Source: Nocardia ignorata NBRC 108230
GTDB lineage: Bacteria > Actinomycetota > Actinomycetes > Mycobacteriales > Mycobacteriaceae
DNA length: 64,000 nucleotides
Reading direction: 5' to 3'
NCBI RefSeq assembly: GCF_001612905.1
Contig: NZ_BDBI01000002.1
Location: 310,001 to 374,000, forward strand
Part shown: piece by piece, positions 18,571 to 39,645 of the stretch
Numbering within the stretch: position 1 is the stretch's first letter
How the letters are laid out: the number at the start of each line of letters is the position of its first letter
The notes under the pieces: generated by a model
Databases searched by the model: none
Told to the model about the DNA's origin: nothing
What the model saw: the letters and a program-made list of their open reading frames with translations, nothing else
Translations under genes and position numbers: made by a program

Positions 18571-21500
18571 GTGCACGGTACGGAGTTGGGTGGGTTCAGC
18601 GCGCGACCGCAGGAAGCGGAGGGTGCGTCGGCACCGTTCCCGCTGACCCCCGCTCAGCTGGGGGTCTGGTACGCGCAGCTGCTCGACCCCGACGTGCCGA
18701 TCACCATCGCCCAGTACGTGGACATCACCGGCGAGCTGGATCCCGATGTGCTGCAAGCGGTTACAGCCGAGGCGGCACACACCTACGGTTCGCCGCTGGT
18801 GCGGATCGGTGAGCGCGACGGTGTTCCGTATCAGGTGGTCGACCACTCGCTCCCGATCGAGAACGAGCTCCCGCTGATCGATCTGCGCCACCACGACGAC
18901 CCCGTCGCCGCCGCCCAGGAATGGATGCGCGCGGAATTCGGCGCCCCGCTCGACCTGCTCACCGACCGCCTCGTCGCGGGCGCGGTGCTGCGGGTGGGTG
19001 CGCAGCGCTGGTTCTGGTACCTGCGCGGACACCACATCGTGCTCGACGGGTACGGCGCGTTCACGCTGTCGCAGCGCATCGCGGAGCTCTACACCGCCCG
19101 GGTACTCGACTTCGAGCCGTCGCGGGTGGTGCCGGGTGACCTGGCCGAACTCGTCGAGGGCGAACAGCGCTACCGCGAGAGCACCCGTTTCGCCGCCGAT
19201 CGTGAGCACTGGGCCGAGCGCATCGCGGGCCTGGACAGCCCGACCGCGCTCGACCCGCGCACCGCGCCGCGCTCGGCGATCAACCTGGTCACCGGCGGCA
19301 GGCTCACCGACAAACTGGTGCAGCGACTGGAAACCATTGCCGCCAGCGATGATTCGACGCTGTCGGCGGTGCTGCTCGCCGCGTTCGCCGCCTACCTCGG
19401 GCGGCTCACCGACCGGCCGCACGCGGTGCTGAGCCTGCCTGTTACGGCTCGGACCACCGCTGTCATGCGGCGCTCGGCGGGCATGCTGTCCAATATCGTT
19501 CCGCTGCGCCTGCCGACCGGCGCGGCCGGGGCGAGCACCACTTGGGGCGAGCTGCTGCGCGCGGCCCGGGTGGAGGTGGCCGGTGCGCTGCGCCACCAGC
19601 GCTACCGCGCCGAGGACATCCGCCGCGACGCCGAGGACGACGGTCGCCCGGCCCGGCGCGCGCTGTTCGGTCCGCTCGCGAACTTCATGCTGTTCCGCAC
19701 CAGCCTGCTGCTCGGCAACACCACCGGGCGCTACCGGGTGCTGTCGACGGGTCCGATCGAGGATCTGAGCCTGAATGTGTACTACGGCGATCACGACCGG
19801 GTGCATGTCGATTTCGAGGCGAACCCCAACCTCTACGACGCCGATTCGCTGGCCCGGCATCACTGCCGTTTCCTGCGCTTCCTCGAGCGGCTGACGGCTG
19901 TCGACCTGGATACCCCGGTCGGCGCCGTCGAGGTGGCCACCGAGCTGGAACTCGAGGTCAGCACCAAGATCTGGAATGCCACCGGCTTCGATGTGACGGC
20001 CGTGCTCACGGAGCGCGCGGTGGCGTCGGCGACGCTGCCCGCGATGTTCGAGGCGCAGGTTCTGCGGACACCCGATTCCGTGGCTGTCCGGATGGCCGGT
20101 TCCGGTCAGGCGCTCACCTATCGCGAACTGTCGCAGCGGGCCGCCCGGCTGGCACGACGGCTGCGGGCGGAGGGCATCGGTCCGGAATCGCTGGTGGCGC
20201 TGAGTATTCGGCGTTCCACCGACCTGGTGATCGCCATGTACGCGGTGCTCGCCGCCGGCGCGGCGTACGTACCGATCGATCCGGACCACCCGGCCGATCG
20301 CATCGCCCACATCCTCGAAACCGCCTCGCCCGCCGCGGTTCTCACCACCACGCGAGAAGCCTCCCTCGCCACGGACGTGCCGGTACTCGCGGTCGACGAC
20401 ATCGACCTGAGCTGGTACGCCGACGAGCCGCTCACCGATGCCGACCGCACGGCGCCGCTGCGGCCGGAGCATCCGGCCTACGTCATCTTCACCTCCGGCT
20501 CCACCGGTCTGCCCAAGGGCGTGGCCGTCGAGCACGCCGCGATCGTGAACCGGCTGGTGTGGATGCAGCACAGCTACCGCCTGCACGGCGTGGACACGGT
20601 GCTGCAGAAGACGCCGACGACCTTCGACGTGTCGGTGTGGGAGTTCCTCTGGCCCTTGCAGATCGGTGCCACACTGCTGCTCGCAGAGCCGGACGGGCAC
20701 CGCGATCCCGCCTACCTGCGCCGGGTGATCGCCGAATACGGCGTCACGGTCGCACATTTCGTGCCGTCGATGCTCGAGGCCTTCCTCGCTCAGCAGGAGA
20801 TCGCCGAACGTGGTTCGTTGCGACTGGTTTTCGCCTCGGGCGAGGCGCTGCCCGCCCCGCTGGCGCAGCGGTTGCGGTTGCTCACCGGCGCCCGGCTGCA
20901 TAATCTCTACGGTCCCACCGAGGCCGCCGTCGACGTCACCTTCCACGAGGTGACCGACGCCGACCGGGTGACGGTGCCGATCGGCGCGCCGGTGTTCAAT
21001 ACCCGGCTCCATGTTCTCGACTCGCGGCTGCGGCCGGTTCCGGTCGGGGCTCCGGGTGAGCTGTATCTGTCGGGGGTACAGCTCGCCCGGGGTTATGTCG
21101 GCCGTCCCGAGCTCACCGCGGGCCGGTTCGTCGCCGACCCGGCGGCGGCGGGTGAACGTATGTACCGCACCGGTGACCTTGTGCGCTGGACGACCAACGG
21201 TGAACTGGAATACCTGGGCCGCACCGACTTCCAGGTGAAGTTGCGTGGCCTGCGCATCGAACTCGGTGAGATCGAAGCGATCCTCGACGGCGTCGAGGGC
21301 GCCGCGCGCACGGTTGTCGTCGTGCGTGACGACGCGGGTGTCGGCGAACAACTTGTCGCGTATGTGGTGGCCGAGGCCGGTGCCGTCACCGCCGACGCGC
21401 TGCGTGCGGCCGCCCTGCGCGCCCTGCCCGCCTACATGGTTCCCGCCGCGTTCGTGCTGCTCGACGAGCTGCCGGTGAACGCCTCGGGCAAGCTCGACCG

Positions 21501-24500
21501 CAAGGCCCTGCCCGCTCCCGCTCGCACCGTCGTCGCCTACACCGAGCCCGCCGGGCCGGTGGAGGAGACGGTGGCGCGGGTGTTCGGTGAGGTGCTCGGC
21601 CTCGAGCGGATCGGCCGTGACGACGACTTCTTCGCACTCGGCGGCAACAGCCTCGTCGCCACCCAGGTCGCGGCGCGCCTCGGCGCCGATCTCGGCTGCG
21701 GTCTGACGGTGCGCGACCTGTTCGGCGCCACGACGGTGGCACGGCTGGCCGCGGTGATCGCCGAGCGCGCCGACGCCGGTGTGAGCGCCCAGCTGCCGGT
21801 GCTCGCCGCCCGACCGCGCCCGTCGACGGTTCCGCTTTCCCCCGCACAGCAACGCATCTGGTTCCTGAATCGGTTCGACCCGGCCGCGCCCGGCTACAAC
21901 ATGCCCTTCGTGGTGCGTGTGCGCGGCACTGCGGATCTCCCCGCGCTGCTGAGCGCGCTCGAGTCCGTGGTGGACCGGCACGAGGCCCTGCGCACCATCT
22001 TCCCGGCTGTCGACACGGGGGGCGAGGTGGCCGAGCAGGTGGTGTGCCCGGCCGGGCTGGTGCGCATCGGTGCGCCGACCGAGGTGGCCGCCGCAGATCT
22101 GGATGCCGAGCTCATCCGATTCGCCTCCACCGGTTTCGATCTGGAGCGCGAGGCGCCGTTCCGCGCGCAGGTGTTCGTGGTGGCCGACACCGCCGCGCGA
22201 GGCGAACCGCACACGGACTCAGACGAGCTCGGCCCCGAAGCCCGTCACGAAAACGGCGCCGCGGTCGATGCGGGTGACGGTGAATGCGTGCTCGCCGTCG
22301 TGTTGCATCACATCGCGGCGGACGGTGTTTCGCTGCAGGTGCTCGTCCGCGATGTGCTCACCGCCTACCGCGCCGCCGCCGACGGCGTCGCCCCCGACTG
22401 GTCGCCGCTGACCGTGCAGTACGCCGACTACACCCTGTGGCAGCGTGAACTCCTCGGCGCCGAGAGCGACCCGAACTCGCTCGCCGCACGCGAAATCGCC
22501 TTCTGGGAAAGGGCTCTGGCGGGACTGCCCGATCAGCTCGAACTGCCGTCGGCGCGGCCGCGTCCGGTGGAACCGAGCATGCGCGGCGCGCGGGTGAGCT
22601 TCACCATCGACCCCGCCCTGCACCGGCAGCTCACCGACTTGGCTCAGCAGGCCGGGGCGTCGCTGTTCATGGTGCTGCACACCGCGCTGGCCGTGCTGCT
22701 CGCCCGCCTGTCGGGCACCACCGACATCGCCGTCGGCACCGGTGTCGCCGGACGTGGCGACCGGGCCATCGACGACCTGATCGGCATGTTCGTCAACACG
22801 CTCGTGCTGCGCACCGAGGTCGACCCGGCCGCCAGTTTCGCGGCCGCCCTCGAGCACACGCGCGAGACCGACCTTGCCGCGTTCGCGCACACCACGGTGC
22901 CGTTCGACCGGCTCGTCGATGTGGTGAACCCGGCGCGCTCGCAGTCACGCCACCCGCTGTTCCAGGTGGCTCTGAACTTCCAGGCGGTGCTCGACACCAC
23001 CTTCGAGTTGGCGGGCTCGCCGGTCACCGTGCACGAGATCGAACTCGCCATCACCAAGTTCGATCTGCAGATCACCCTGGCCGAAAAGCGTTCCGCCACT
23101 GGCGAAGCCGACGGTATCGAGGCCGTCGTCCTGTACGCCACCGATCTGTTCGACGAAACCGATATCCGTGACCTCGGTGCGCGCTTCGTGCGTTTGCTCG
23201 CCGCCGCCTCGGCCGCGCCGGAAACCGCCGTGGGCGAGCTGCCGCTGCTGTCGGTGGAAGAACAGGCCCGGCTCACCGGCATGCGTGGCGCACCCGTCAC
23301 CGCCACCGGTCTGCTACCCGACCTGCTCGCCGCCGCCGTCGCGGCCGACCCGGAGCGTGAGGCCGTCACCGACGGCGACCGCAGCCTCACCTACCGGGAG
23401 CTCGAGCGGGCCTCGTCGCGACTGGCCCGGGTGCTCATCGATGCCGGCGTCGGACCGGACGACGTCGTCGCCGTCGGCATTCCGCGTTCCATCGAATCGG
23501 TGCTCGCCGTGTGGGCGGTCGCGAAGGCGGGTGCGGCGTGGCTGCCCGTCGACCCCAGCTACCCGCTGGACCGGATCAACCACATGGTCACCGATTCCGG
23601 TGCACGCCTCGGCCTGACCGTCGACGGGTCGGCCGCCGCGCTGCCCACCTCGATCGAATGGCTGGCCCTCGACGAGCTCAAGCTGATGGCCGAATGCGCC
23701 TCGCGCTCCAGCGAACCCGTCACCGATCTCGACCGGGTGCGTCCGCTGCGGGCCGAGCACCTCGCCTATGTCATCTACACCTCCGGTTCCACCGGTCTGC
23801 CCAAGGGTGTGCTGGTGACCCAGGCCGGGATCGCCGGATTCGCCGCCGAGGAGACCGATCGCATGGTCGGCTCGCCGGACGCGCGGGTGCTGCAGGTGGG
23901 TTCACCGTCGTTCGACATCTCGGTGATGGAGTTCCTGCTCGCGGTGAACTCGGCCGCCACGCTGGTGATCGCCGTGCCCGGTCGGCATGTCGGTGACGAA
24001 CTGGCGCAACTGCTTTCGGAGCAGCGGGTCACACACGCGCTCATGACCCCGTCGGCGCTGGCCGTCCTCGATCCCGCCCGGCTCGAGCACCTGCGGATGG
24101 TGATGGTCGGTGGCGAGGCGTGCCCGCTCGAGCTGGTCGCCCGCTGGACCGAGGGCCCGGTGGGGCGCGTGTTCGTCAACGCCTACGGCCCCTCCGAGAC
24201 CACCGTCGCCACGAACATCAGCGCACCCCTCACCGCCGACACCCCGCTCACCCTCGGCACACCGCTGCGCGGCATCGCTCAGTGGGTGCTCGACAGCAGG
24301 CTCCGCCCGGTGCCCGCGGGCGTCACCGGCGAGCTGTACGTGGCGGGCGCCCAGCTCGCCCGTGGCTACCGCGACCGCGCCGCCCTCACCGCCACCCGCT
24401 TCGTCGCCTGCCTCTGGGAGCAGGGCGCCCGCATGTACCGCACCGGCGACCTGGTCCGCTGGACCCCCGAAGGCTCCCTCGTCTACGTCGGCCGCAACGA

Positions 24501-27500
24501 CGACCAGGTGAAACTGCGCGGATTCCGCATCGAACTCGGCGAAATCGAATCCGCCCTCCTCGCCGACGCCTCGGTTCGCCAGGCCGTCGTGATGGTCCGC
24601 CGCGATGCCCATCGCGGTGACCAGCTCGTCGCCTACCTCGTGCCGGCCACACGGTCGGGCAAGGGCTCCGAAGCGTTCCCGGAGAGGATCGCCGAAGGGC
24701 TGCGTGGTCGGTTGGCGGCGCATATGGTGCCGTCCGCGTTCGTGGTGCTCGACGCGCTGCCGTTGACGCCGAACGGGAAGCTCGATCGGCGGGCGTTGCC
24801 GGAGCCGGTGTTCGCGGCGAAGGCCTTCCGCGCACCCGCGCCTGGCACCGAAACCGTGGTGGCTCAGGTGTTCGGCGACGTGCTCGGCGTGGAGTCGGTC
24901 GGCGCGGATGACGACTTCTTCGCTCTCGGTGGCAATTCCCTGGTCGCCACGCAGGTCGTGTCCCGGCTCGGGGCCGCGCTCGGTGCCGGTGTGCCGTTGA
25001 AGTCGCTGTTCGAAGCGCCGACCGTCAGCGCGCTCGCCGCCCGCCTGGCCGGTGCCGAGAAGACCGCCGCGATGCCCGCACTCGTCGCAGGTGAACGGCC
25101 GCAGCGGATTCCACTGTCCTACGCGCAGCAGCGGATGTGGTTCCTCAACCAGTTCGACGCGGAGTCGGTGGCCGACAATATCGCCGCCGCCATCCGCCTG
25201 ACCGGCGATCTCGACCACACCGCGCTGGCCGCGGCAGTGGACGCGGTGATCGCCCGGCACGAAGCGCTGCGCACCCGCTACCCGGCCGTCGACGGTATCC
25301 CGTTCCAGCAGGTTCTCGATCGGTTCTCCGTGGCCCTCGAGCCCGAGGACATCGATCCCGCGACGCTCGACGATCGTGTCCGCGCACTCGCCGCCGTGCC
25401 GTTCGCGGTGGATCAGGAGCCGCCGGTCCGCCTGCGCCTGCTGCGCACCGCCGCCGACGAGCACGTCCTGGTGCTCGTGGTGCACCACATCGCCGCCGAC
25501 GGCTGGTCGGTGGCGCCGCTCACCCACGACGTGATGCTCGCCTACGCGGCCCACCGCGCGGGCACCGCTCCGGAGTGGACCGCGCTGCCCGTGCAGTACG
25601 CCGACTTCGCCCTCTGGCAGCGGGACGCGCTGGGTGCCGAGGACGACCCGTCGTCGGCGATGGCCCGTCAGATCGGTTTCTGGACAACAGAACTCGCGAA
25701 CCTGCCCGACCTGCTGGCGCTCCCCACCGACCGCCCGCGTCCGGCCGTGGCATCGGGTCGCGGAGCCCGCCACGCCTTCTCGATTCCCGCGACGATCACC
25801 GACCGCCTGCGTGCGCTGGCGGCCGAGTCCCACGCATCGCTGTTCATGGTGCTGCACGCCGTGTTCGCCACCACCTTGGCCAAACTCTCGGGCGAGGACG
25901 ACATTTCGGTCGGCACACCCGTGGCCGGTCGCGGTGACCAGGCTCTCGACCGGCTCGTCGGCATGTTCGTCAACACGCTCGTGCTGCGCACCCGGATTCC
26001 GTCGGATGCCACCTTCACCGAACTCGTCGGCACCGTCCGCGACGCCGATCTGCGTGCACTCGCCAACGCCGACGTCACCTTCGACCGGCTCGTGGAGGTG
26101 GTCGACCCACAACGCTCGACCGCACGCCACCCTCTCTTCCAGGTGATGCTCGACTTCCAGAACACCACCCGGACCGAACTCGAACTCGCGGGCCTCACCG
26201 CGACGGAAGTCGAGATCGACACCCACACAGCCAAATTCGACCTGCACCTGACGCTGCGCGAAACCTCCGACGGCCTGCTCGCCCGCTTCGAGTACGCCAC
26301 GGACCTCTTCGACGCGCGGACCATCACAGATTTCAGCACCCGGCTCCTACGGGTACTGGATACGGTGAGCGCCGATCCCAACGTCGTGATCGGCGACATC
26401 GACCTGCTCGGCGCCGCGGAGCGCACCCTGCTGCTCGAAACCTGGAACGACACCGCGTTCCCGGTGATCGAGGGGGCGAACCTGGTCTCGCTGTTCGAGG
26501 CACAGGCCGCCCGCACCCCGGGTGCGACCGCGGTGACATTCGAGGGTCGGTCCCTCACCTACGCCGAGTTCGGCGAGCGGGTGAATCGCCTCGCCCGCCT
26601 GCTCATCTCGATCGGTGTGCGCCCCGACCGCACGGTTGCCCTCGGACTGCGCCGCGGCACCGACCTGGTGGTCGCCATGTACGCGGTGCTCACCGCAGGT
26701 GGGGCGTACGTGCCGCTCGACCCCGACCACCCCGCCGAGCGCATCGCGCAGGTGCTCGACGCCGCCGACCCGGTGTGCGTGCTCACCCGTGAGGCGGACG
26801 GCCTCGATCTGGCCCGCGCCGAGCGCGCTGTCGTCCTCGACCTGGATCAGGTCGACACCACCGATTACCCGGCCGACCCGGTCACCGACGTCGACCGCCT
26901 CGCCACCATCACCCCGGACAATGCCGCCTACCTGATCTTCACCTCCGGCTCCACCGGCAAGCCCAAGGGGGTTGTCGTCTCGCACGCCGCGATCGTCAAC
27001 CGGCTGATCTGGATGCAGGACGCCTACCGCCTCACCCCCGCCGACACCGTCCTGCAGAAGACACCCGCCACCTTCGACGTCTCGGTGTGGGAGTTCTTCT
27101 GGCCGCTGCAGATCGGTGCCCGTCTCCTCCTGGCCGCCCCCGACGGTCACCGTGACCCGGCCTACCTCGCGGACCTCATCGACCGTGAAGCCGTCACCGT
27201 CGCCCACTTCGTCCCCTCGATGCTCACGGCGTTCGTCGGCGCGCTGGGTGCCGACATCGCCCCGATGACCGGGCAGCTCACCGCGCCCCGGTGCGCGTCG
27301 CTGCGGCTGGTCTTCGCCTCGGGCGAGGCGCTGCCGCCGACGCCCGCCCAGGCCGTGCGCGAGCTCACCGGTACAGCTGTGCACAACTTGTACGGCCCCA
27401 CGGAAGCCGCAGTCGACGTGACTTTCCACGAGGTCGTCGACGCCGACGAGGTCACCGTCCCGATCGGCGCCCCGGTCCACAACACCCAGGTCTACGTCCT

Positions 27501-30500
27501 CGATACCCGCTTGCGTCCGGTTCCGCCCGGCGTCCCCGGCGAGCTCTACCTGGCAGGTATTCAGTTGGCCCGTGGCTACGCGGGTCGCCCCGACCTCACC
27601 GCCGACCGCTTCGTCGCCAACCCGTTCACTCCCGGCGAGCGCATGTACCGCACCGGTGATCTGGTGAGCTGGACGGTCCTCGCCGACAGCGACCCGGCAG
27701 CGAGTGTGTCGCACATCGACGCCCGCACCAGTGGTGCTGATTCCTCGGACGACACCGATATTCGCGTCGGAGGAGACGTGGACAGAGCGCCGGTGCGCTG
27801 TGCACGTGGCGAGCTGCAGTACTTGGGCCGCACCGATTTCCAGGTCAAACTGCGCGGGCTCCGGATCGAGCTCGGTGAGATCGAAGCAGCGCTGTCGAGG
27901 GTGCCCGAGGTTGCCCAGGCTGCGGTTCTGGTCCGCGACGACGTGCTGGTCGGCTATCTCGTCGGCGCCCCGGATCTCGAGGCCGTCGAGTCGACGCTGG
28001 CTCGCACCCTCCCGGCCTACATGGTCCCGTCGGCGTTCGTGGTGCTCGACGAGTTCCCGCTGAACGCTTCCGGCAAGCTCGACCGGAAGGCGCTGCCCGC
28101 ACCGGTTTTCGAGGCCGCGGCATTCCGTGCGCCGTCGACCGAGGTGGAGCGGATCGTCGCCGCCACCTTCGCCGCCGTGCTCGGCTTCCCGGCCGATCGG
28201 CAGGTCGGTCTCGACGACGACTTCTTCGCCCTCGGTGGCAACTCGCTCACCGCCACCCAGGTCGTCGCCCGGCTCGGTGCCGCCCTCGACACCCAGGTCC
28301 CCGTGCGTCTGCTCTTCGACGCACCGACGGTCCATACACTGGCCGAACGATGCGCGGCTCTGCAGGGCATCGGCGGCCGGGTAGCGCTCACGACTCGCGC
28401 ACGCCCGCAGCATATTCCGCTTTCGCCCGCGCAGCGGCGCATGTGGTTCCTCAATCGCTTCCTCGCCGACGCCGACGGTCCCGGCGACGCCGTCGACAAC
28501 ATCCCGGTCGCCCTGCGCCTCACCGGCGACCTCGATATCGCCGCGCTCGAGGCGGCCCTCGCCGATGTGATCGACCGGCACGAAACCCTGCGGACCAGTT
28601 ACCCCGAAGGCCCTGACGGCGCCGAGCAGCGGATCGCCGCCGCCGCCCCGCTCGCGCTGACACCCGAGCCGGTCACCGAACGGGAACTGCCCGCCCGCCT
28701 GCTGGCATGTGCCGCGGTGCGCTTCGACCTGACCACCGAGATCCCGTTCCGCGCGGCACTGTTCGCGACGGACGACGCGCACGTCCTCGTCCTCGTCGTC
28801 CACCACATCGCCGCCGACGGTTTCTCCCTCGGCCCGCTGGCCGCCGACCTGATGACCGCCTACGCCGCCCGCCGCGACGGCATCGCCCCCGCCTGGTCGC
28901 CACTGCCGGTCCAGTACGCCGACTACGCCCTCTGGCAGGACGAGGCACTCGGCGACCCTGTCCACCCCGGCTCGCTCGCCCACACCCAGCTCGCCTTCTG
29001 GCAGCGCACCCTCGCCGGTCTGCCCGAACAGCTGGAACTGCCGACCGACCGGCCACGTCCGGCCGATTCGAGCTTCCGCGGCGGCGTGCACCGGTTCCAG
29101 ATCGACTCCGATCTGCACAGTGAGCTGCGGGAACTCGCGCGCAAGCACGAGGCGACCCTGTTCAGCACCGTGCACGCGGCGCTGGCCGTGCTGCTGGCGC
29201 GGCTGTCGGGCAGCGGTGACATCGCCATCGGCACCCCGGTCGCCGGCCGCGGGGAGGCCGCCATCGACGGCCTGATCGGCATGTTCGTCAACACCCTCGT
29301 CCTGCGCACCCAGGTCGACCCGCGCGCCGAATTCGAAACCACCCTCGATGCCGTGCGCGCGGGCGACCTCGACGCCCTCTCCCACGCCGACGTCCCCTTC
29401 GAGCAGGTCGTCGAGGCCGTCGACCCGGCACGGGCCCGCAACCGGCACCCGCTGTTCCAGGTGGCTCTCGTCCTGCAGAACTTCACCGTTCCCGCACTCG
29501 ACGCGGCCGGATTGCACGCGGCCCCCGTCGATTTCGACGCCGCCGTCGCGAAGTTCGACCTCCAGTTCACCCTGCGCGAATCCGACGACATCGACGGCCG
29601 CGCAGACGGCATGGCCATCGAAATCGCCTACGCCACCGACTTGTTCGACGAATCCAGCGTGGCTGTCCTCGCCCGCCGCTTCACCCAGGTGCTGGCCGCT
29701 GTCGTCGCGGACCCGACCGTCGTCGTCGGCGACATCCAGTTGCTCAGCGCCGAGGAGCAGCAGCGCACGCTGCACGACTGGGCGAGCGTCGAGGCCGCGG
29801 TGGCCGAGACCGGCGACAGCATGGTCGACCGGTTCGCCCGCGCCGCCCGCATCGATCCGCAGGCCGTCGCGGTGAAGGCAGGGGAGCGGCAGCTCACCTA
29901 CGCCGAGCTCGATGCCTGGTCCAGCCGTCTCGCCCGGCGTCTCATCGCGGCAGGAGTCGGCCCCGAGGCGCTGGTGGCCGTCGCTCTTCCGCGCACTGTC
30001 GAACTCACCGTCGCGCTGCTCGCGGTGCTGAAGGCCGGTGGCGGTTACCTGCCGATCGACCCGAACTATCCCGCCGACCGGATCGAGTACGTCCTCGACG
30101 ACGCCCGCCCGCTGTGCGCCGTCGCCAATGCGGAGACCGGCCTGCCGCGCGACTGGTTCGGCGGGCCGGTGATCGACCCGAACTGCGGCAACCTGGCCGA
30201 CTTCGGAGCCGAACCGCTCACCGACACCGATCGCCGTGCCCCGCTCGCACCCGCGCACACGGCCTACGTCATCTACACCTCCGGTTCCACCGGCCGCCCC
30301 AAGGGCGTGCAGGTGCCGCACGCGAACGTGCTCGCGCTGCTGGATAATACGGCCGCGAAGTTCGAGTTCGGGCCGTCGGATGTGTGGACGATGTTCCACT
30401 CCTACGCCTTCGACTTCTCGGTCTGGGAACTGTGGGGAGCCCTGCTGCACGGTGGCTCGATCGTCCTCGTCGACTACTACACCTCCCGCTCACCCGAACA

Positions 30501-33500
30501 GTTCCGCGAACTCCTGATCCGCGAACAGGTCACCGTCCTCAACCAGACCCCATCGGCCTTCTATCAGCTCATCGCCGCCGATCTGGACGCCCCGGCCATC
30601 GCCGCCGATGGGGTCGCGCCCGCCGTCGCTGCCGATCCGGTCGCATGCGCCACCGATGCGGACCGGCCGTGTGACCCGTCCGTCGGTGCTGAATCCGGCA
30701 GTGGGGACGCCGACCCGGATGCGCTTCCCGCGGGCGGCAGGGCAGACCGCGCCACGGCGGATGCGCAGGGTCTGCGTGGCTCGGCCGAGGGTGCTCCCGC
30801 CGACTTCGCGCTACGCGCGGTGATTTTCGGCGGTGAAGCGCTGGAACCGCAGCGACTGGATGCTTGGTTCGCCCGCCATCCGCACGCGCCTCGACTGGTG
30901 AATATGTACGGCATCACCGAGACCACCGTGCATGTGTCCTACCGCGAGATCACCCCGGACACCGGCTCGGCCAGCGTGATCGGCGGCGCCATCGCCGGAC
31001 TCACCGTGCGCGTCCTCGATTCGCGGCTGCGTCCCGTTCCGGCGGGCGTGCCCGGTGAAATCTACGTGTCCGGCCCACAGTTGGCGCGCGGCTACCTGAA
31101 CCGACCCGGCCTGACGGCGAGCCGCTTCGTCGCCGACCCGTACGGTCCGCCCGGGTCGCTCGCCTACCGGTCCGGCGACCTGGCCCGCTGGAAGGCGACC
31201 GGTGACGGCGCCGACCTCGAGTACCTCGGTCGTGCCGACCAGCAGGTGAACCTGCGCGGCTTCCGGGTGGAACTCGGTGAGATCGAGGCGGCGTTGCTGA
31301 ACAGCTCGGCGGCGCCCCGCGAAGTCGCGGTGCTGGTGCGTACGGATCTCGTCGACGAGCCAAGGATCGTGGCCTACCTCGTGCCGGGTACCGCGCACAT
31401 CGATGCCTCGGCGCTGCGCCAGGAACTGTCGCGCACACTGCCCGAGCACATGCTTCCGGCCGCGGTCGTGCCCGTCGAGCGGATTTCGCTGACGGTCAAC
31501 GGCAAACTCGACCGGGCCGCGCTGCCCGCGCCGGTCTTCGAGGCCACCGTGTACCGCAAGCCCGCCACGGTCACCGAGGAGATCGTGGCCGCGGTCTACG
31601 CCGAGGTACTCGGCACCGGTGACCAGCCGGTCGGCGCCGACGACGACTTCTTCGCCCTGGGCGGCAGCTCCCTGCTTGCGGCCAAGGCTGTGGCCCGCAT
31701 CGGCGCGGCACTCGACCGCAGGGTCGGTGTGCGCACCCTGTTCGAGGCGCCGCGCGTCGGCGACCTGGCCGCCGCCGTGGACGCGCAGGCGAAGGTGGAC
31801 CGTCCCGCCCTGGTCGGCCGGGCACGCCCCGACCGCCTGCCGCTCTCGCCTGCCCAGCAGCGCATGTGGTTCCTCAACCGCTTCGACCGCACCTCGGTGG
31901 CCTACAACATCCCGTTCGCCCTCCGCCTCACCGGCGACCTGAACATCCGCGCACTCCAAGCGGCCGTTGCCGATCTGATCGCCCGGCACGAATCCCTGCG
32001 CACCATCTACCCCGAAGTCGACGGCACCCCCGTCCAGTCGATCGTCCCCGCCGCGCAAGCGATCGCCTCCGGCGGCGGGCTCCCAGCCGCCGCGTCCTTC
32101 GACGTGGTCGAGACCCGCGTCGCCCCAGTAGCCGATCACGTCGCAGCCGCGACCGTCGATTCGACTCCTGCGCGGGCCGGAGCCATCCCGGCGCTGGTCG
32201 CGGTGGACATCACCGATGAGTCTGTGCCGCACGCTGTTCGGGAGCTGGCCGAAACCACCTTCGATGTCACCGCCGAAATCCCGGTCCGGCTGCGGCTCTT
32301 CCGCCTCGGCGAGTCCGAGTTCGTGCTGGCGGCGGTCCTACATCACATCGCCGCCGACGGTTCGTCGATCGCACCGTTCGTCGCCGATCTGATGCGCGCC
32401 TACACCGCCCGGCTCGCCGACACCGCGCCCGGCTGGACGCCGCCCGCCGTCCAGTTCGCCGACTACGCCCTCTGGCAGCGTGAACTGCTCGGCGACGACA
32501 GCGACCCCGAATCGGTCGCCGCCCAGCAACTCGCCTTCTGGCAGCGACAGCTCGCGGGCCTCCCGGATCAGCTGGCGCTGCCGACCGATCGTCCGCGCCC
32601 GGCCCGGCAGAGCCTGCGCGGCGACAAGGTGACTTTCACCGTCGACGCCGACCTGCACGCCGGGCTCGCCGCGCTCGGCCGCGCGCACGGCGCCACCCTG
32701 TTCATGGTGGTGCACGCGGCCTTCGCCGCCCTGCTCGCGCGGCTCTCCGGCACCGGCGACATCGCCGTCGGCACCCCGACCGCCGGTCGCGGTGAGGCCG
32801 AACTCGACGAGGTCATCGGCATGTTCGTCAACACCCTGGTGTTGCGCACCCCGGTGACGCCCGCGGCGCCGTTCACCGAGCTGCTGGCGGCGGCCCGCAC
32901 TGCCGACATCGCCGCCTTCGCCCACGCCGATGTGCCGTTCGAGCGGCTGGTCGAGGTGCTCAACCCGGCCCGCTCCACCGCCCGGCACCCGCTGTTCCAG
33001 GTCGGCTACTCCTTCCAGAACCACGATCGTGGAAACCTGGAGTTGCCCGGCCTCACCGTGACCGACATCGAATTCGATTCCGGCGTCGCGCAATTCGATC
33101 TGCACCTGTTCGCCCTGGACAACTACACCGCCGACGGGTCACCCTCGGGTATCGACATGGTGCTCGGCTACGCGACCGACCTGTTCGACGACACCACCGC
33201 CGAGCGGTTCGCCCGGTCTCTGCACCGCATCCTCGAATCCGTCACCGCCGTACCGGAAACCCGCGTCGGCGACCTCGACCTGCTCGGCGCCGACCGCGTT
33301 CGTGTGCTCGAGACATGGAACGCCACCGCGCACCCGGTCGCCCCGGCCACGCTGGCCGACCTCGGCGCCCGGCAAGCGGAGCGGACCCCGGACGCGACCG
33401 CCCTGATCGACGCCGATACCGGGGAATCCCTGGACTACCGCACCTTCGACGCCCGGGTGAACCGCATCGCCCGCCTGCTCATCGCCGAAGGTGTCGGCCC

Positions 33501-36500
33501 GGAACGCACCGTGGTGCTCGCCATGCGCCGAGGGCTCGACCTGGTGATCGCCATGCACGCCGTGGTCCGTGCCGGTGGCGCGTACGTGCCGATCGACCCC
33601 GACCACCCGGCCGACCGCATCGCCTACATCATCGAGACCGCCGCGCCGATGTGTGTGCTCACCACCGTTGCCGACGGTGTGCCCGTCACGGTGAACGTTC
33701 CCGTCTTCGAGCTGGATCATCGTGCGCTGGAGGAGGTGACGAACGAGCCGGTCACCGATGCCGAGCGCATCACCCGGCTGCGCCCGGAGCACCCCGCGTA
33801 CGTCATCTTCACCTCAGGCTCCACCGGCCTGCCCAAGGGTGTCACCGTCCCGCACGCGGCCGTCGTCAACCAGCTGGCCTGGCTGCACGACCGTTTCACC
33901 ATGACCGGCACCGACCGTGTCCTGCTGAAGACACCGGCCACCTTCGACCTGTCGGTCTGGGAATTCTGGTCCCCCCTCACCAGCGGTGGGGCGCTGATCG
34001 TCACCCGCCCAGGTGACGAACGAGAACCAGATCGTCTGCGCGACATCATGAACCGCTACGGCGTCACGGTGCTGCACGCCGTCCCATCACTGATCGGCAT
34101 GCTCCTCGCCGGTGCCGATGTCGACGCCCCGACCGCAACGACCCTGCCCCTGTCGCTGCGCGCGGTCCTCGCCATCGGTGAAGCGCTACCGGCCGCGACC
34201 GCCACCCAGTTCCTGGCGTCCGGCACCTCGGCTCGTCTGCACAACCTGTACGGGCCGACCGAGGCCGCTGTCTCGATCACCGAACACGAAGTCGCGCAGC
34301 ACCCTTCGCATGGGGTTCCGATCGGCTCGCCCGAGTGGAACAGCGCGGTGTACGTGCTGGATACCCGACTCAACCCCGTGCCGATCGGGGTGGCGGGCGA
34401 GCTGTATCTGGCCGGCGCGCAGTTGGCCCGTGGCTACCACGGCCGCTACGCCCTGACCGCCGATCGCTTCGTCGCCAACCCCTTCGAGCCGGCCGGGACA
34501 CGCATGTACCGCACCGGCGACATCGTCCGCTGGCGCGACGACGGCACGCTCGAATACCTGGAGCGCGCCGACTTCCAGGTCAAGATCGGTGGCTTCCGGA
34601 TCGAGCTCGGTGAGGTCGAAACGGCCCTGCTGCGCTGCACCGATGTGCGTGCGGCGGTCGCGATCGCCAAGGACGACGACCGCGCGGGCACCCGCCTGAT
34701 CGCCTACGCGGCGGTTGCCGACCTGACACCCGGTGACGAGCAGACCATCGCGTCGCGCCTGCGTGGCGAACTCGCGGGCCACCTGCCCGCCTATATGGTC
34801 CCCGCCGCCGTGGTGGTGCTCGACAGCCTGCCACTCAATGCCAACGGCAAAGTCGACCGAGCCCGGCTGCCAGAACCGGCCTTCACCGAGGCGGCCTTCC
34901 GCGCACCGGTCACCGCGCTGGAACAGCTTGTCGCACAGGTTTTCACCGAGGTGATCGCCTGCCCGAGCGCCGGTCTCGACGACGACTTCTTCGCCCTCGG
35001 CGGCAACTCGCTGATGGCGACCCGGCTCGCCGCCCGGCTCGGTGCCGCACTCGGCGCCCAGGTGCCGGTCGCGGCCGTTTTCGAGGCACCGACCGTCGCG
35101 GCCCTCGCCGAGCGGCTGGCCGCCGCCGACCGCACGGACGCACGCCCGCCGCTCACCCGGCGCACCGAGGCCGGACCCGCCGTCCTCGCACCCGCGCAGC
35201 AGCGCATGTGGGTGCTGCACCAGCTGTCCCCGCAGTCGTCGGCGTACCACATCCCCGCCGCCATCCGCCTCACCGGCGAACTCGACCTGGCGGCCCTGCA
35301 GGCCGCGATCGCCGACCTGCTCGCCCGCCACGAGAGCCTGCGCACCCGGTACCCGGACACCCCGGACGGACCGGTGCAGCAGGTACTGCCCGCGTGGTCG
35401 TCGGCGGTCGACCTGACGCCCATCCCGGTCGCCGCCGACGACGTCGAGGCCCGGATCGTCGCCCTGGTCGCCCAGCCGTTCGACATCACCGCCGCACCGC
35501 CGGTTCGCGTGGCGCTCTACAAACTCGGTGAGAACGAGCACGTACTGGTCGTCGTCGTCCACCACATCAGTGGCGACGGTTACTCGATCGCACCGCTCAC
35601 CCGGGATCTGGTGCGCGCTTACGTCGACCGTGCTCAGGGCAACGAACCAGGCTGGGCGCCACTGGAAATCCAGTACAGCGACTTCAGCGTCTGGCAGCGA
35701 ACCATGCTCGGTGACGAGCACGACCCGGACAGTGTGGTGTCCCAGCAGCTGCGGTACTGGTCGCAGGAGCTCGCGGGCGCACCGGAACTTCTGTCGCTCC
35801 CGACCGACCGCCCCCGCTCCACGCGACGCGAGACGCACGGCGCGACTGTCGAATTCGGGGTCGATTCAGCACTGACCCGACGCCTGGACGAGGTGGCTCG
35901 CAGCAACAACACCACCTTGTTCACCGTCGTCCACAGCGCTCTCGCCGTGCTGCTCGCCAAGCAGTCGGGCAGCAGCGATGTCACCGTCGGTGCCCCCGTC
36001 GCCGGTCGCGGTGCGCGCGAACTCGACGATCTCGTCGGCATGTTCGTCAACACCGTCGTGCTGCGCACCGAGGTCGACTCCCGTGCCCCGTTCACCGACC
36101 TGCTCGCCCAGGCCCGCCGCCGCGACCTGGCCGCCATCGCGCATGCCGATGTCCCGTTCGAGCAGGTGGTAGACGCGCTCGGGCGGACCAGATCGGGCGC
36201 CTACACGCCGCTGTTCCAGGTGATGCTCACCTTCCAGAACATGCCACCGGGCAGCATCGACCTACCCGGCCTACGCGTGCAGCCGCTCGACCCGGGCCTG
36301 ACCGAAGCCAAGTTCGACCTGCACCTGACCGCCGTGCAGCGCTACGACGCCGACGGCGAACTCGACGGCATCGACATGCATTTCGGTTACGCCACAGACC
36401 TTTTCGACGAGAAGACCATCCGGGTGCTCACCGAGCGATTCCGCAAGGTGCTCGCCGCCGTCGCCGCCGATCCCGCCGTGGTGGTTCGGGCCATCGACGT

Positions 36501-36846
36501 GCGCACCGACGCCGAGCAGGCACCCACCGCACCGACCACCGCCGACCTGCCGAGCCTGATCGGCTCAGCGGCCCGTGTGGCGCCGGCGACCGTGGCATTC
36601 GTCCACGGCGAGCACGCCATCTCCTTCGCCGAGCTCGACGCCAAGCTCACCGCCGTGAGCCGGTCGATGGGCGCGAAGATGAAACCCGAAGCGCTGATCA
36701 ACGTCGCGCTGGCCGGGCTGGTGCCCGGTGTGCTCGGCGCCCTCGGCGCGGCGGGTCTAGCCACCACTTTGCACACACTGGTGACCGATGCCGCCGCGGT
36801 GATCGCCGGGGCGGGGTCGGCTGACGACTCGGAAGGACAACTCTGA
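18571..36846 (+). CDS. Non-ribosomal peptide synthetase, five C-A-T modules plus terminal C and adenylation stub
   Basis: GTG 18571 is the chosen start: AGGAGG lies five bases upstream, and the C domain (FPLTPAQLG) begins at residue 23. Order is C1-A1-T1-C2-A2-T2-C3-A3-T3-C4-A4-T4-C5-A5-T5-C6-stub, 6091 residues. Condensation histidines H154 (HHIVLDG), 1246, 2305, 3411, 4591 and 5664 all sit in intact HHxxxDG. Phosphopantetheine serines are near 1027, 2123, 3225, 4367 and 5480. Pocket codes read by eye: A1 DVWHFSLVDK (Ser), A2 DIMLMGAVAK (hydrophobic, unassigned), A3 DVWHFSLVDK (Ser), A4 DFWNIGMVHK (Thr), A5 DLWHLILVSK (unassigned). C1 resembles the DhbF/EntF starter C, so an acyl or aryl cap is likely. 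There is no epimerase, methyltransferase or thioesterase. Residues ~5991-6091 match only the first ~100 residues of an A domain. Acidic, Ala-rich insertions occur in C2, A3, A4 and C5. The stop overlaps the next ATG (TGATG). Confidence 0.93.
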
Positions 36847-39389
36847 TGTCGCACACGAATTCGGTCACGGCCGCCGTCCCGTTCGACACGCTGGGGCGTG
36901 AGCTCCCGAACGAAGACGGGCGTGACCCGGCGACCCTGCTCGCCGCATTCATCGACCAGGTCGCCGACGACCCCGATGCGCTCGCTGTCGTCGACGGCGA
37001 ACGCGCCCTCACCTACGCCGAGATCGCCGACCGCGCCGAAGAGCTGGCGGCGGTGCTGGTGGAACGCGACGCCGGTCCCGAGACCACGGTCGCGGTGTGC
37101 CTGCCCCGTTCCGCCGAACTGGTGGTGGCCGTGCACGCCGTGATCGCCTCGGGGGCGGCGTTCGTTCTGCTCGATCCCGACGCACCCGCCGACCTGCGTG
37201 CCCGCACCCTTGCGCTGGCGGCGCCCACCCTGCTGCTCACCCGGACCGTTCCCCCGTCCGCCGACCCGGGTCTCGACACCGGCTCGACAACCGATGCTGT
37301 TGTCGAACAGGGTGTTTCGGTTCAGGTGTTGACCGGCGCGGACAACCCGCCTGCTGAAGGTTCCCGTGCTCTTCCCGGTCCGGGTGCCGACAATCCCGCC
37401 TACCTCGTCGTCGACCCGACCGCCTCGACCGCCGTCGTCATCGGACATCGTGCGGCACACGCCAATTCGGTCTGGCGGTATCGGATGTGCGGCATCGGGG
37501 CAGGCGATTCCGTGCTGTGGCACGCACCGCTCGCCTCCCAGGCCGCGATCGGTGAACTCCTGCTCGCCCTGCAATCGGGCGCGGCACTCGCACTGCCCGT
37601 CGGCGACACCCTCGCCGAGGCGATCGCCGAAACCCGGGTTACCACAGCCGCGTTCGACCCGGCCCAACTCGCGGAACTGACCGAGCTACCCGACGCCGAG
37701 GAACTACTCGACTCGCTACGCGTGGTACTGGCCCGAGGCGCGACCCTCCCGGCGAGAACCGCCGCGGCCCTGCGTTCGGTGAGTGGCGCCACCCTGTGGC
37801 AGGTGTACGGCAGACCGGAAACCGCGGGCGAGGTCGTCGCCCACGAGGTGACCGGCGCCGACCTCGAAGTGGTGCCACTCGGGTGCGCCGCCGACGACGT
37901 GGAACTGCTCGTTCTCGACGAACATCTCGAACCCGTCGCCGACGGTGAGGTGGGCGAACTGTACATCTCCGGCGTGCAATTGGCGCGCGGCTACCTCGGC
38001 AGGCAGGCGACCGCCGCCACCTTCCTCGCCAACCCCATCGGACCCGTCGACGACCGCATGTTCGCCACCGGCGACCTGGTGCGTCGCAGGCCACCGGGGG
38101 AGGGGTGGGCCGCCGAACTCGAATACGTCGGGCGGGTGGACGATCGCGCCGACCGGTACGCGGTCGTCCCGGTACGCGGCGGACTGCCGGGTGAACTCCT
38201 GCTCGACGAGTTCGAAGCCCAGGCCGCCGCGACGCCTTTCGATCCGGCCGTCGTCCACGCGGCGGGTTCCGGATCGATCATCACCTACGGTGACCTCGAC
38301 CGGCGGACCAATCAGCTCGCCCGGCACCTGGCCGCGCTCGGCATCGGGCCGGAATGCCCGGTGCTGGTGGATATTCCGTGCTCGATCGAGCTGGTCGTCG
38401 GTGTGTACGCCGTGCTGAAGGCGGGTGGCGCGGTGGTGCCGGTCGAGGCCGGGGTGCTGCCGCCGGTCGTCGGTCCCGCGCTGATCGTCACCGTGGCCGG
38501 GCGCGAACACACTGCGGTGTACGACATTCCGCGGGTGGTCATCGACGACGTGGCGCTGTCGGACTACTCCGACGAACCCATCACGCCCGGTGAGCGGCGC
38601 GCGCCCGTACTTCCGCAGCATCCGGCCTTCGTGCTGTATCCGCGCGGCGCCGGGCAGGGCGTCACCGTGAGCCACGCGGCGGCGGTGCACCGGATCACCG
38701 CCATGCAGAGCAGGCACGGGCTCACCGGCCGCGACGTGTACCTGCACCAGGCCACCGAATGGCACGGATATGTGCTGCCGTTGCGGGTCGGCGCCACCGT
38801 TGTCCTCACCGAACCTCCTGATCCGGCCCGGTTGACCGACCTGATCGCCACCTACGGCATCACCGCCGCCGACTTCACCCCGCAGCGGCTCACCGAATTC
38901 ACCGAACACCTCACCGGCGTCGCCGACGGTGTGCCGACCCTGCGCAGTGCCGTCGTGCTCGGCGCCCCGCTCACCGCCGCACAGATCCGCGACTTCGCCG
39001 CCGTCTCCGCCGCGCACCTGCACCACGACTACGGTCGCGCCGAAGCGACCGTCACCCTCACCTACCCCGAACAACCCCGCGCCGACTCGGGTGAACCCCC
39101 GCCGGTCCGGGTTCGGGAATGGAACCGCCGCGTCTACGTGCTCGATGCGCGACTGCGCCCGACCAGTCCCGGCGTCGCGGGCGAGCTGTACCTGTCGGGC
39201 GCGCAACTGGCTCGCGGCTACCGCGACGACCCGACCGTCACCGCCGAACGCTTCGTCGCCAACCCCTTCGGCATCCCCGGCGAACGCATGTTCCGCACCG
39301 GTGAACGCGCCCGCTGGGAAATCGACGGAACCACCGCCGCTCTGGTCCGCCTCGGCACTACCAACCCCACCAGGAAGGCACTCCCATGA
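36846..39389 (+). CDS. Tandem degenerate adenylation-like (pseudo-A) protein of the NRPS operon
   Basis: The 847-residue protein has two successive A-domain-like halves (about 25-430 and 455-840) and nothing else: no C, T or TE domain. Each keeps N-terminal A1/A2-like strands (ALTYAEIADRAEEL; IITYGDLDRRTNQL), the GELYxSGxQLARGY segment and a weak TGD/TGE motif. The ATP-binding core (S/T)GSTGxPKG is lost: PTASTAVVIGH in half 1 and PRGAGQGVTVSH in half 2. The pocket Asp is Gln-like or missing, the A8 R-x-E-L-G-E-I-E hinge is absent, and so is the A10 lysine. It cannot be a normal adenylating enzyme. Start and stop overlap both neighbours (TGATG, ATGA), so it is made in step with the synthetase and the MbtH-like protein. 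A structural, docking or decoy role is possible; a decaying module remnant is the alternative. Confidence 0.85.
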   Translation: MSHTNSVTAAVPFDTLGRELPNEDGRDPATLLAAFIDQVADDPDALAVVDGERALTYAEIADRAEELAAVLVERDAGPETTVAVCLPRSAELVVAVHAVIASGAAFVLLDPDAPADLRARTLALAAPTLLLTRTVPPSADPGLDTGSTTDAVVEQGVSVQVLTGADNPPAEGSRALPGPGADNPAYLVVDPTASTAVVIGHRAAHANSVWRYRMCGIGAGDSVLWHAPLASQAAIGELLLALQSGAALALPVGDTLAEAIAETRVTTAAFDPAQLAELTELPDAEELLDSLRVVLARGATLPARTAAALRSVSGATLWQVYGRPETAGEVVAHEVTGADLEVVPLGCAADDVELLVLDEHLEPVADGEVGELYISGVQLARGYLGRQATAATFLANPIGPVDDRMFATGDLVRRRPPGEGWAAELEYVGRVDDRADRYAVVPVRGGLPGELLLDEFEAQAAATPFDPAVVHAAGSGSIITYGDLDRRTNQLARHLAALGIGPECPVLVDIPCSIELVVGVYAVLKAGGAVVPVEAGVLPPVVGPALIVTVAGREHTAVYDIPRVVIDDVALSDYSDEPITPGERRAPVLPQHPAFVLYPRGAGQGVTVSHAAAVHRITAMQSRHGLTGRDVYLHQATEWHGYVLPLRVGATVVLTEPPDPARLTDLIATYGITAADFTPQRLTEFTEHLTGVADGVPTLRSAVVLGAPLTAAQIRDFAAVSAAHLHHDYGRAEATVTLTYPEQPRADSGEPPPVRVREWNRRVYVLDARLRPTSPGVAGELYLSGAQLARGYRDDPTVTAERFVANPFGIPGERMFRTGERARWEIDGTTAALVRLGTTNPTRKALP

Positions 39390-39610
39390 CCAACCCGTTC
39401 GACGACGACAACGCCCAGTTCTACGTCCTCGTGAACTCCGAAGGCGAACACTCCCTCTGGCCGACCTTCGCCGCCGTCCCCGGCGGCTGGACCGTGGCTT
39501 TCGGTGCCGCCCCCCGCACCTCGTGCCTGCACTACGTCGAATCCCACTGGCTCGACATGCGCCCCAATTCCCTCATCGCCGCCATGGCCAACGACCCCCG
39601 CCCCGAGTAG
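39386..39610 (+). CDS. MbtH-like NRPS accessory protein
   Basis: The 74-residue protein has the MbtH fold signature: NPFDDDNAQFYVLVNSEGEHSLWP, then PGGWTVAF, and a late LHYVESHWLDMRPNSL. MbtH proteins bind the N-terminal subdomain of A domains and aid folding or activity. Two usually conserved positions differ: the Gln of ExQxSxWP is His here, and the Thr of WTDxRP is Leu. The ATG overlaps the previous stop (ATGA), and AGGAAGG lies at 39372-39378. It is the last gene of the operon and probably serves the 6091-residue synthetase, possibly with the pseudo-A protein. Confidence 0.9.
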   Translation: MTNPFDDDNAQFYVLVNSEGEHSLWPTFAAVPGGWTVAFGAAPRTSCLHYVESHWLDMRPNSLIAAMANDPRPE

Positions 39611-39645
39611 GCCCGTCACCGTCGGGGCCGGCTTCGGCGGGACAA

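What the first reader, a model, noticed from the sequence alone, without database searches (positions are those of the whole stretch)
36846..39389. A protein built only of two ATP-site-less adenylation halves, coupled between an NRPS and its MbtH-like protein
Both halves keep the A-domain scaffold (GELYxSGxQLARGY and neighbours). Both lose the phosphate-binding A3 motif, the pocket Asp, the A8 hinge and the A10 lysine, and no carrier domain is present. The reading frame is intact over 847 codons and joined to both neighbours by stop-start overlaps, which argues against simple decay. It may be a structural partner that occupies the terminal C6 domain, a docking scaffold, or a partner for the unusual MbtH-like protein.
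Basis: partly seen in the sequence, partly recalled or inferred. Interest (0 to 1): 0.8.

Follow-up and report, generated by a model that had tools for sequence, protein, structure and literature searches.

The report
Selected twin of dead adenylation cores
In one branch of the bacterium Nocardia, the gene slot that holds a giant eight-module peptide-making enzyme in related species holds a short protein made only of two adenylation cores without their ATP loop; its sequence is kept by selection about as strictly as the adenylation cores of the neighbouring enzyme, and it likely serves as a non-catalytic holder for the small helper protein (MbtH-like) encoded next to it.

Summary
ORF 36846-39389 (847 aa) is two adenylation (A) cores; both lack the A3 P-loop, the A4 Asp, most of A8 with all that follows, and an A10 Lys, and no carrier is present. 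It overlaps the NRPS gene before it and the MbtH-like gene after it. It is not a freely decaying pseudogene: 17 of 148 Nocardia genomes carry an open orthologue in the same slot, and 30 database clusters form a family named only from Nocardia. Mean dN/dS is 0.17 (half 1) and 0.16 (half 2), within the 0.12-0.20 of four A cores of the neighbouring NRPS in the same genome pairs; neutral simulations give at least 1.0. Half 1 groups with the first and half 2 with the sixth A domain of the giant NRPS (8429 and 8652 aa in two genomes read) that fills this slot in other Nocardia, each on a long stem. Half 1 models as a complete A core (pLDDT 88). Its A6-A7 face, including the two alanines that touch MbtH-like proteins, is its best-conserved part, but the salt-bridge Arg there is lost. 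I read it as a pseudoenzyme, likely a structural holder of the MbtH-like protein; that binding is untested. The MbtH-like protein is canonical, not unusual.

The parts
36846..39389 (+). Twin pseudo-adenylation protein, 847 aa (database name 'AMP-binding protein')
   Evidence: ORF; Pfam AMP-binding x2; orthologues in 17 of 148 Nocardia genomes; dN/dS
36927..38141 (+). Half 1: A core that groups with A1 of the giant NRPS2, without C-terminal subdomain
38187..39368 (+). Half 2: A core that groups with A6 of the giant NRPS2, without C-terminal subdomain
   Evidence: tree (100/98 with NRPS2 A6)
37413..37433 (+). Site of the lost A3 P-loop in half 1 (3-residue gap plus substitutions)
38640..38660 (+). 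Site of the lost A3 P-loop in half 2
38007..38072 (+). Half 1 segment ATAATFLANPIGPVDDRMFATG: A6-A7 face that in active A domains contacts the MbtH-like protein; two contact alanines kept, salt-bridge Arg replaced by Ala
   Evidence: residue roles from PMC7593251 passages, mapping mine
39240..39302 (+). Half 2 segment TAERFVANPFGIPGERMFRTG: the same face with alanines, Glu and Arg all kept in the window (segment present in 13 of 17 genomes)
18334..36846 (+). NRPS1, 6170 aa: C-A-T x5, then C6 and an A-domain N-terminal stub; no thioesterase motif found by the scan (start codon not resolved)
   Evidence: motif scan; P-loop and A10-like Lys in all five A domains, A8 altered in the fifth; C6 HHISGDG/HHISADG in 17 of 17 genomes
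36529..36843 (+). C-terminal stub of NRPS1 that resembles an A-domain N-terminus
36540..36885 (+). Stretch with depressed synonymous divergence (stub codons plus first codons of the 847-aa gene; borders approximate); cause unknown
36831..36837 (+). Shine-Dalgarno-like GGAAGGA before the 847-aa gene
   Evidence: sequence; GGAAGG at this place in 17 of 17 (read)
39372..39378 (+). Shine-Dalgarno-like AGGAAGG before the MbtH-like gene, inside the last codons of the 847-aa gene
   Evidence: sequence
39386..39610 (+). MbtH-like protein, 74 aa, canonical
   Evidence: Pfam MbtH 94.5 bits

Best explanation
The 847-aa ORF encodes two adenylation cores that have no P-loop, no C-terminal subdomain and no carrier domain, that group in a tree with the first and sixth A domains of the giant NRPS filling the same slot in other Nocardia, and that are under purifying selection; it is predicted to be a catalytically dead structural subunit that likely holds the MbtH-like protein encoded next to it for the remaining NRPS. 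Shown: anatomy, place, orthologues, grouping of the carriers in one clade, purifying selection, grouping with NRPS2 A1 and A6. Inferred: an ancestor lost the internal and terminal parts of NRPS2 by in-frame deletions, and the two A cores lost their active sites and took on a fixed new consensus. Inferred and untested: made beside the MbtH-like protein, the pseudo-A protein binds it through the A6-A7 face of half 1 (and of half 2 where present) and so keeps it folded and near NRPS1, possibly next to C6, which lost its original partner A domain. Release of the NRPS1 product would then need C6 itself or a partner in trans; this too is untested.
For: Orthologues in 17 of 148 Nocardia genomes (E 2.6e-180 or better; the next match is 3.0e-110; 148 of 148 match some A domain at E 0.001), in open frame after NRPS1 and before an MbtH-like gene. 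The 17 genomes with the closest NRPS1 stub (E 5.5e-43 or better, next 6.2e-33) are the same 17. Database family: window protein plus 29 clusters at E 1.5e-228 or better, all named ones Nocardia, then 1.1e-78 (candidates limited to 0.55-1.75 times the length and to 7996 scored). dN/dS 0.11-0.24 in 13 of 13 pairs (NG86). Over 11 pairs, which share genomes, means are 0.17 half 1 and 0.16 half 2, against 0.13, 0.12, 0.20 and 0.17 for NRPS1 A1, A2, A3 and A5 cores. Neutral simulation: means 1.34-1.72, lowest 1.01. A-core tree: half 1 with NRPS2 A1 100/99, half 2 with NRPS2 A6 100/98, on stems of 1.14 and 0.60. 55 positions (9 of them gaps) at which 90% or more of 22 intact A1 and of 17 half 1 sequences are fixed for different states. 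The A6-A7 block is the best-conserved stretch of half 1 (0.93 and 0.95 mean pairwise identity). Contact alanines kept in 17 of 17 genomes and 30 of 30 clusters. Half 1 folds as a full A core; best Foldseek match is FscH in complex with its MbtH-like protein.
Against: Binding to the MbtH-like protein is not shown. In half 1 the Arg that salt-bridges MbtH-like proteins is Ala in 17 of 17, and the neighbouring Glu is Ala. Half 2's intact-looking segment is deleted in 4 of 17 genomes (and absent by pattern in 13 of 30 clusters). In active A1 domains the same face is also strongly conserved (0.91 and 0.86), and the intact set spans deeper divergence, so the high value in half 1 is not a special signal by itself. 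Only one fixed change separates the MbtH-like proteins of the two lineages, so there is no sign of co-adaptation. The gene still loses pieces: lengths 705-1061 aa, with half-2 or C-terminal losses in three sub-lineages. The N-terminal third of half 1 is less constrained (0.12-0.37). The whole-protein model is poor over the A5-A7 part of both halves (pLDDT 70, pTM 0.43). NRPS1 itself is split into two frames in 2 of 17 genomes, G146 and G031, in draft assemblies; error or real break was not tested. A domains of NRPS1 probably also need the MbtH-like protein, so its upkeep does not depend on this protein.
Confidence: 0.42

Rival explanations
1. It is a pseudo-A partner of the orphaned C6: half 1 takes the place of the lost A domain in the C-A platform, stabilising C6 so that C6 can release or cyclise the NRPS1 product. 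The MbtH-like protein is only a neighbour.
For: Half 1 groups with the A domain that follows C6 in intact genomes. C6 keeps HHxxxDG in 17 of 17 and has dN/dS 0.11-0.22 over 11 pairs. The 17 genomes with this NRPS1 type all have the protein.
Against: The N-terminal stub of NRPS2, which lies opposite the NRPS1 stub in intact genomes, is lost. The N-terminal part of half 1 is less constrained (dN/dS 0.12-0.37 before residue 181, against 0.00-0.22 from the LDSLR motif to the end of half 1); that the A-core N-terminal part is what meets a C domain is recalled, not tested.
Confidence: 0.25
2. The frame is kept only to carry ribosomes to the MbtH-like gene (translational coupling); the amino acids do not matter.
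For: Stop-start overlap or contact with the MbtH-like gene in 12 of 17 genomes, with a Shine-Dalgarno-like sequence inside the last codons in the window and several relatives.
Against: In 5 of 17 genomes the overlap is gone (MbtH-like start 12-29 bases past the stop), yet the frame is intact, and G037/G060, both of these, still show 0.24. Amino-acid constraint lies in the range of the NRPS1 A cores.
Confidence: 0.06
3. It is a slowly decaying remnant of NRPS2 with residual constraint.
For: Groups with NRPS2; piecewise losses (1061-1019, 847, 717-705 aa). Half 1 is less conserved than active A1 once the shallower depth of its clade is considered.
Against: No frameshift or stop in 17 of 17 genomes, though neutral simulation expects only 1.2-3.1 stops per pair. 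dN/dS 0.11-0.24 against simulated neutral 1.0 or more. A fixed new consensus at 55 positions of half 1.
Confidence: 0.1
4. It is an active protein of another kind, for example one that binds a nucleotide or an acyl or aminoacyl ligand in the remodelled pocket.
For: Fixed new residues lie in the former A3, A4 and A5 motifs. The YG and E of A5 are mostly kept.
Against: No P-loop, no A4 Asp, no A10-like Lys, no C-terminal subdomain.
Confidence: 0.1

Closest known systems
NRPS2 of other Nocardia (8429 and 8652 aa in G070 and G074: 8 A domains, thioesterase), same slot between NRPS1 and an MbtH-like gene
   Same: Place, neighbours, and tree position of both A cores
   Different: All carrier and thioesterase domains, the condensation domains (except an end piece in some relatives) and six of eight A domains are gone, and both remaining cores lack catalytic motifs
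Stand-alone trans adenylation domains that need MbtH-like proteins, such as Cal22 and Cal23 (PMC7539972, abstract and section list seen)
   Same: Free-standing A-domain proteins beside an NRPS, with an MbtH-like protein
   Different: Those activate amino acids and are essential for their product; this protein has no catalytic motif, is a tandem and has no C-terminal subdomain
A domains solved with MbtH-like proteins or domains (FscH-FscK 6EA3, EntF-YbdZ 5JA1, TioS 5WMM, SlgN1 4GR4/4GR5)
   Same: Fold and the contact alanines in the A6-A7 segment
   Different: Active enzymes; half 1 has lost the contact Arg and Glu
NRPS docking domains (COM, PAX, beta-hairpin; review PMC9113145, passages seen)
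   Same: Non-catalytic parts that join NRPS subunits
   Different: Those are short terminal elements; this is a separate 847-aa protein, and no docking was tested
Pseudoenzymes in general (recalled)
   Same: A dead enzyme fold kept by selection
   Different: My searches listed no tandem pseudo-adenylation protein from a collapsed NRPS subunit (titles and abstract starts, open-licence papers only)

Membership tests
Active NRPS adenylation domain | A3 P-loop SGSTGxPKG | tested here: not met
   gap and substitutions in 34 of 34 halves; 0 of 17 genomes and 0 of 30 clusters by pattern
Active NRPS adenylation domain | A4 motif with pocket Asp (FDxSxWE) | tested here: not met
   Asp in 0 of 34 aligned halves
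Active NRPS adenylation domain | A5 motif YGPTE | tested here: not met
   Y[GS][RK][PA]ET in half 1 of 17 of 17; Y[GD]RAEAT in half 2 of 12 of 17, deleted in the other 5
Active NRPS adenylation domain | Full A8, C-terminal subdomain and A10 Lys | tested here: not met
   only the first residues of A8 in half 1; QVKxxG in 0 of 17; NGK/SGK in 0 of 17 and 0 of 30
Active NRPS adenylation domain | A-core fold | tested here: met
Active NRPS adenylation domain | ATP-PPi exchange | not testable with these tools
   bench assay needed
A domain that binds an MbtH-like protein | Two contact alanines in the A6-A7 segment | tested here: met
   half 1 TAAxF[LV]ANP in 17 of 17 and 30 of 30; residue roles from PMC7593251, mapping mine
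A domain that binds an MbtH-like protein | Salt-bridge Arg of the same segment | tested here: inconclusive
   Ala in half 1 of 17 of 17; Arg kept in half 2 in 13 of 17 genomes (17 of 30 clusters by pattern)
A domain that binds an MbtH-like protein | Binding itself | not testable with these tools
   no complex prediction available; co-purification needed
MbtH-like protein (39386-39610) | Pfam MbtH match and NPFD...SLWP...W-DMRP-SL signature | tested here: met
Pseudogene in decay | Frameshifts or stops in relatives | tested here: not met
   0 of 17
Pseudogene in decay | dN/dS near 1 | tested here: not met
   0.11-0.24 over 13 pairs; neutral simulation 1.01 or more
NRPS docking domain | Binding between subunit ends | not tested
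   only stub homology was seen

The most novel reading that the evidence does not exclude
A whole assembly-line subunit collapsed into a twin pseudo-adenylation scaffold: two dead A cores, pruned at the same structural points, that clamp the MbtH-like protein and cap the orphaned terminal C domain, turning a two-subunit, thirteen-module peptide line into a five-module line with a structural rather than a catalytic second subunit.
Probability: 0.3. Interest if true: 0.8.

Novelty: new variant of a known kind. Interest (0 to 1): 0.62.

Why it matters
Dead NRPS pieces are usually taken for junk. Here one is kept by selection across a clade, which gives a natural test of what an A domain does apart from catalysis: holding the MbtH-like protein, supporting a C domain, or both. 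If it holds the MbtH-like protein, it could be a ready-made helper for expressing MbtH-dependent NRPSs, and a natural model of how a thirteen-module line is cut to five without losing its helper.

Tried and rejected
Decay: disfavoured by dN/dS and intact frames. Coupling-only: 5 of 17 genomes lack the overlap. Unusual MbtH-like protein: canonical. Co-change of the MbtH-like protein with the reduction: one fixed difference only (MbtH-like genes found in 17 of 22 intact stretches looked at, 5 not found by my pattern).

Synonymous conservation of the last ~100 codons of NRPS1: RNA structure was tried. The window stretch folds with z -3.17, but RNAalifold over 13 sequences gives an unfavourable covariation term (+1.33) and only 3 of 108 pairs with changes on both sides, so no support. 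No Rfam match in the window at gathering scores, no sigma-70-like promoter in 36300-39700. Stops in the other frames were listed: one forward frame is broken in all 17; the other forward frame and one antisense frame are open over most of the stretch in many genomes, which is common in GC-rich DNA; an overlapping gene was not tested further. It stays unexplained.

Pfam scans of 20 other window ORFs and 3 found no further NRPS, carrier or thioesterase gene; several of these ORFs are likely spurious frames, and not every gene of the window was scanned.

Conservation of half 1 against intact A1 is not corrected for depth; the intact set is deeper, so I rely on same-pair dN/dS instead. In one search the A3-core value of pair G057/G146 rests on a split NRPS1 frame and is unsure. 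dN/dS by YN00 failed for 1 of 13 pairs. A first regional run stopped with an error after two and a half pairs and was redone. The A-core tree used half 1 of 8 and half 2 of 6 of the 17 genomes and two intact genomes, and is rooted at the midpoint for drawing only; its crown branches reach 0.53. Pattern search of intact junctions found 14 of 23 (a first attempt, picked wrong stops). Complex prediction of the protein with C6-stub or MbtH-like protein was not available.
Full report
What is there. The ORF 36846-39389 is real, intact and 847 codons long. It matches Pfam AMP-binding twice and nothing else at E 0.001. It starts inside the stop of a 6170-aa NRPS (NRPS1) and ends inside the start of a 74-aa MbtH-like gene. 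NRPS1 has five C-A-T modules, then a sixth condensation domain (C6) with HHISGDG, then a stub that resembles the N-terminus of an A domain. All five A domains of NRPS1 have a P-loop and an A10-like Lys; the fifth has an altered A8.

What is missing. Set against the five A domains of NRPS1 and the A1 and A6 domains of two intact NRPS2 proteins, both halves lack the P-loop (a three-residue gap plus substitutions) and the A4 Asp, in 34 of 34 halves from 17 genomes. Half 1 stops within A8, keeping GR and mostly VD after it; half 2 stops just before A8. A pattern count finds no P-loop, NGK/SGK, carrier or condensation motif in 17 of 17 genomes and 30 of 30 family clusters. The two halves were changed at the same places: P-loop cut, C-terminal subdomain cut, and the P of A5 (YGPTE) turned to R (K in one half 1), giving mostly YGRPE and YGRAE.

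Where it comes from. In other Nocardia the same slot holds an NRPS2. Two were read in full (8429 aa in G070, 8652 aa in G074): eight A domains and a thioesterase, followed by an MbtH-like gene; a third (G019) was cut by the fetched stretch. Open frames at this place in other genomes range more widely. In a tree of A cores, half 1 groups with NRPS2 A1 (100/99) and half 2 with NRPS2 A6 (100/98). Each sits on a long stem (1.14 and 0.60 changes per column), and most branches above it are shorter (up to 0.53 in half 1 and 0.42 in half 2; 8 and 6 of the 17 genomes used). The carriers form one group by their C6-stub sequences (17 rows against 14 intact rows, one change, support 100/99). Among them are N. 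coubleae, N. rosealba, N. caishijiensis, N. neocaledoniensis, N. rhizosphaerihabitans and N. alba. Seven relatives have 1019-1032 aa and one 1061 aa, with an extra piece that reads as the end of a condensation domain (by eye); four have 846-847 aa, the window's included; four have 705-708 aa and one 717 aa, with parts of half 2 lost. In a family-wide sample of 121 genomes from 31 genera (at least 7 of them Nocardia) only the window's own genome matched at 1e-100.

It is not decaying freely. All 17 frames are open. Whole-gene dN/dS (NG86) is 0.11-0.24 in 13 of 13 pairs; YN00 gives 0.04-0.10 in the 12 it could compute. Over 11 pairs, which share genomes and so are not independent, half 1 averages 0.17 and half 2 0.16 (half 2 is partial in the 705-708-aa group). 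The A1, A2 and A3 cores of NRPS1 average 0.13, 0.12 and 0.20 in the same pairs, and the A5 core 0.17 (from the table). So the halves lie within the range of presumably working A cores. The condensation remnant of the longer relatives, in the four pairs that have it, shows 0.15-0.35. Neutral simulation on three pairs, 100 runs each, never gave less than 1.01; it expects only 1.2-3.1 stops per pair, so the lack of stops alone says little. At 55 positions (9 of them gaps) half 1 has one state in at least 90% and intact A1 another (17 against 22 genomes). So a new consensus arose and is being kept. Half 1 is, however, less conserved than active A1 once the shallower depth of its clade is considered.

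Why I favour the MbtH-like protein as partner. In PMC7593251 (passages seen) two alanines of the A domain are predicted, and seen in SlgN1, to meet Ser and Leu of the MbtH-like protein, an Arg 12 residues after the second alanine makes a salt bridge, and a Glu next to the first meets an Arg. I map these to TA-E-RFVA...MYR-TGD; the mapping is mine. Half 1 keeps both alanines in 17 of 17 genomes and 30 of 30 clusters but has Ala for both Glu and Arg. Half 2 keeps the segment with its Arg in 13 of 17 genomes; the other four have lost it. The A6-A7 stretch is the most conserved in half 1 (0.93 and 0.95), while the P-loop, pocket and A8 stretches have fallen relative to A1. The two genes are neighbours in 17 of 17 genomes. 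This is suggestive, not proof: the face is well conserved in active A domains too, an important contact is lost in half 1, and the MbtH-like proteins themselves show one fixed change only. The window's genome has a second MbtH-like gene elsewhere.

The C6 rival. C6 has lost the A domain that follows it in intact genomes, and C6 stays under constraint (0.11-0.22) with its active-site motif in 17 of 17. Half 1 groups with just that A domain, so it may complete the C-A platform. Against this, the N-terminal stub of NRPS2 that lies opposite the NRPS1 stub in intact genomes is gone, and the N-terminal part of half 1 is less constrained. NRPS1 is split into two frames in G146 and G031; whether these are assembly errors was not tested.

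Coupling. The stop-start overlap or contact with the MbtH-like gene exists in 12 of 17 genomes; in the other five the start lies 12-29 bases past the stop, but the protein is still intact. So coupling alone does not explain the open frame.

An extra, unexplained result. The last ~90-100 codons of NRPS1 show little synonymous change: about 0.10 of fourfold sites differ, against 0.21-0.48 in the 700 codons before them, and the first 33 codons of the 847-aa gene show 0.13. In intact genomes the dip is milder (0.16, with dips of similar depth elsewhere). No covarying RNA structure, Rfam family or sigma-70 promoter accounts for it.

Literature. Searches for Nocardia NRPS, inactive A domains, MbtH-like proteins and docking listed no description of such a protein in the titles and abstract starts shown; the library holds open-licence papers only. 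The main text of a genome paper on N. mangyaensis, a species with a member of the family (P0009), holds neither 'MbtH' nor 'AMP-binding'.

Verdict. Origin by collapse of NRPS2 plus purifying selection I would put near 0.9; the holder mechanism near 0.4.

Noticed in passing
window 36540-36885: Synonymous sites of the last ~100 NRPS1 codons and the first codons of the 847-aa gene are strongly conserved across the reduced clade (about 0.10-0.13 of fourfold sites differ, against 0.21-0.48 in the 700 codons before); dN and dS are both low in the stub, as for a DNA- or RNA-level element.
   Followed up: partly
NRPS1 C-terminus (window 36529-36843) and NRPS2 N-termini, e.g. G027:C25:68103-68761: The C-terminal stub of NRPS1 and the N-terminal stub of intact NRPS2 resemble each other (31-42% identity to the window's stub) and both look like A-domain N-termini; the adjacent pair is seen in 43 genomes among the listed rows (counted by hand, list truncated) and in none of the 17 reduced ones there. 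It may be an undescribed docking pair.
   Followed up: partly
window 39646-40857, - strand: A protein with two TetR DNA-binding domains (two PF00440 stretches) lies just past the MbtH-like gene on the other strand.
   Followed up: no
window 16767-18137: A GAF-domain protein ends about 200 bases before the listed NRPS1 ORF on the same strand; possibly its regulator.
   Followed up: no
G000:C24:17204-17470: A second stub-like sequence lies in a 7792-aa open frame elsewhere in the window's genome, and several reduced genomes have the like.
   Followed up: no
NRPS1, window 18334-36846: NRPS1 open-frame length varies between close relatives (6170, 6294 and 6378 aa). The fourth A domain holds an Asp/Ala-rich insertion before A5 and has the longest end branch in the A-core tree.
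   Followed up: no
P0122: A 117-aa unnamed protein on a 13.6-kb contig is 85% identical to the NRPS1 stub; a free stub or a fragment of a gene call.
   Followed up: no
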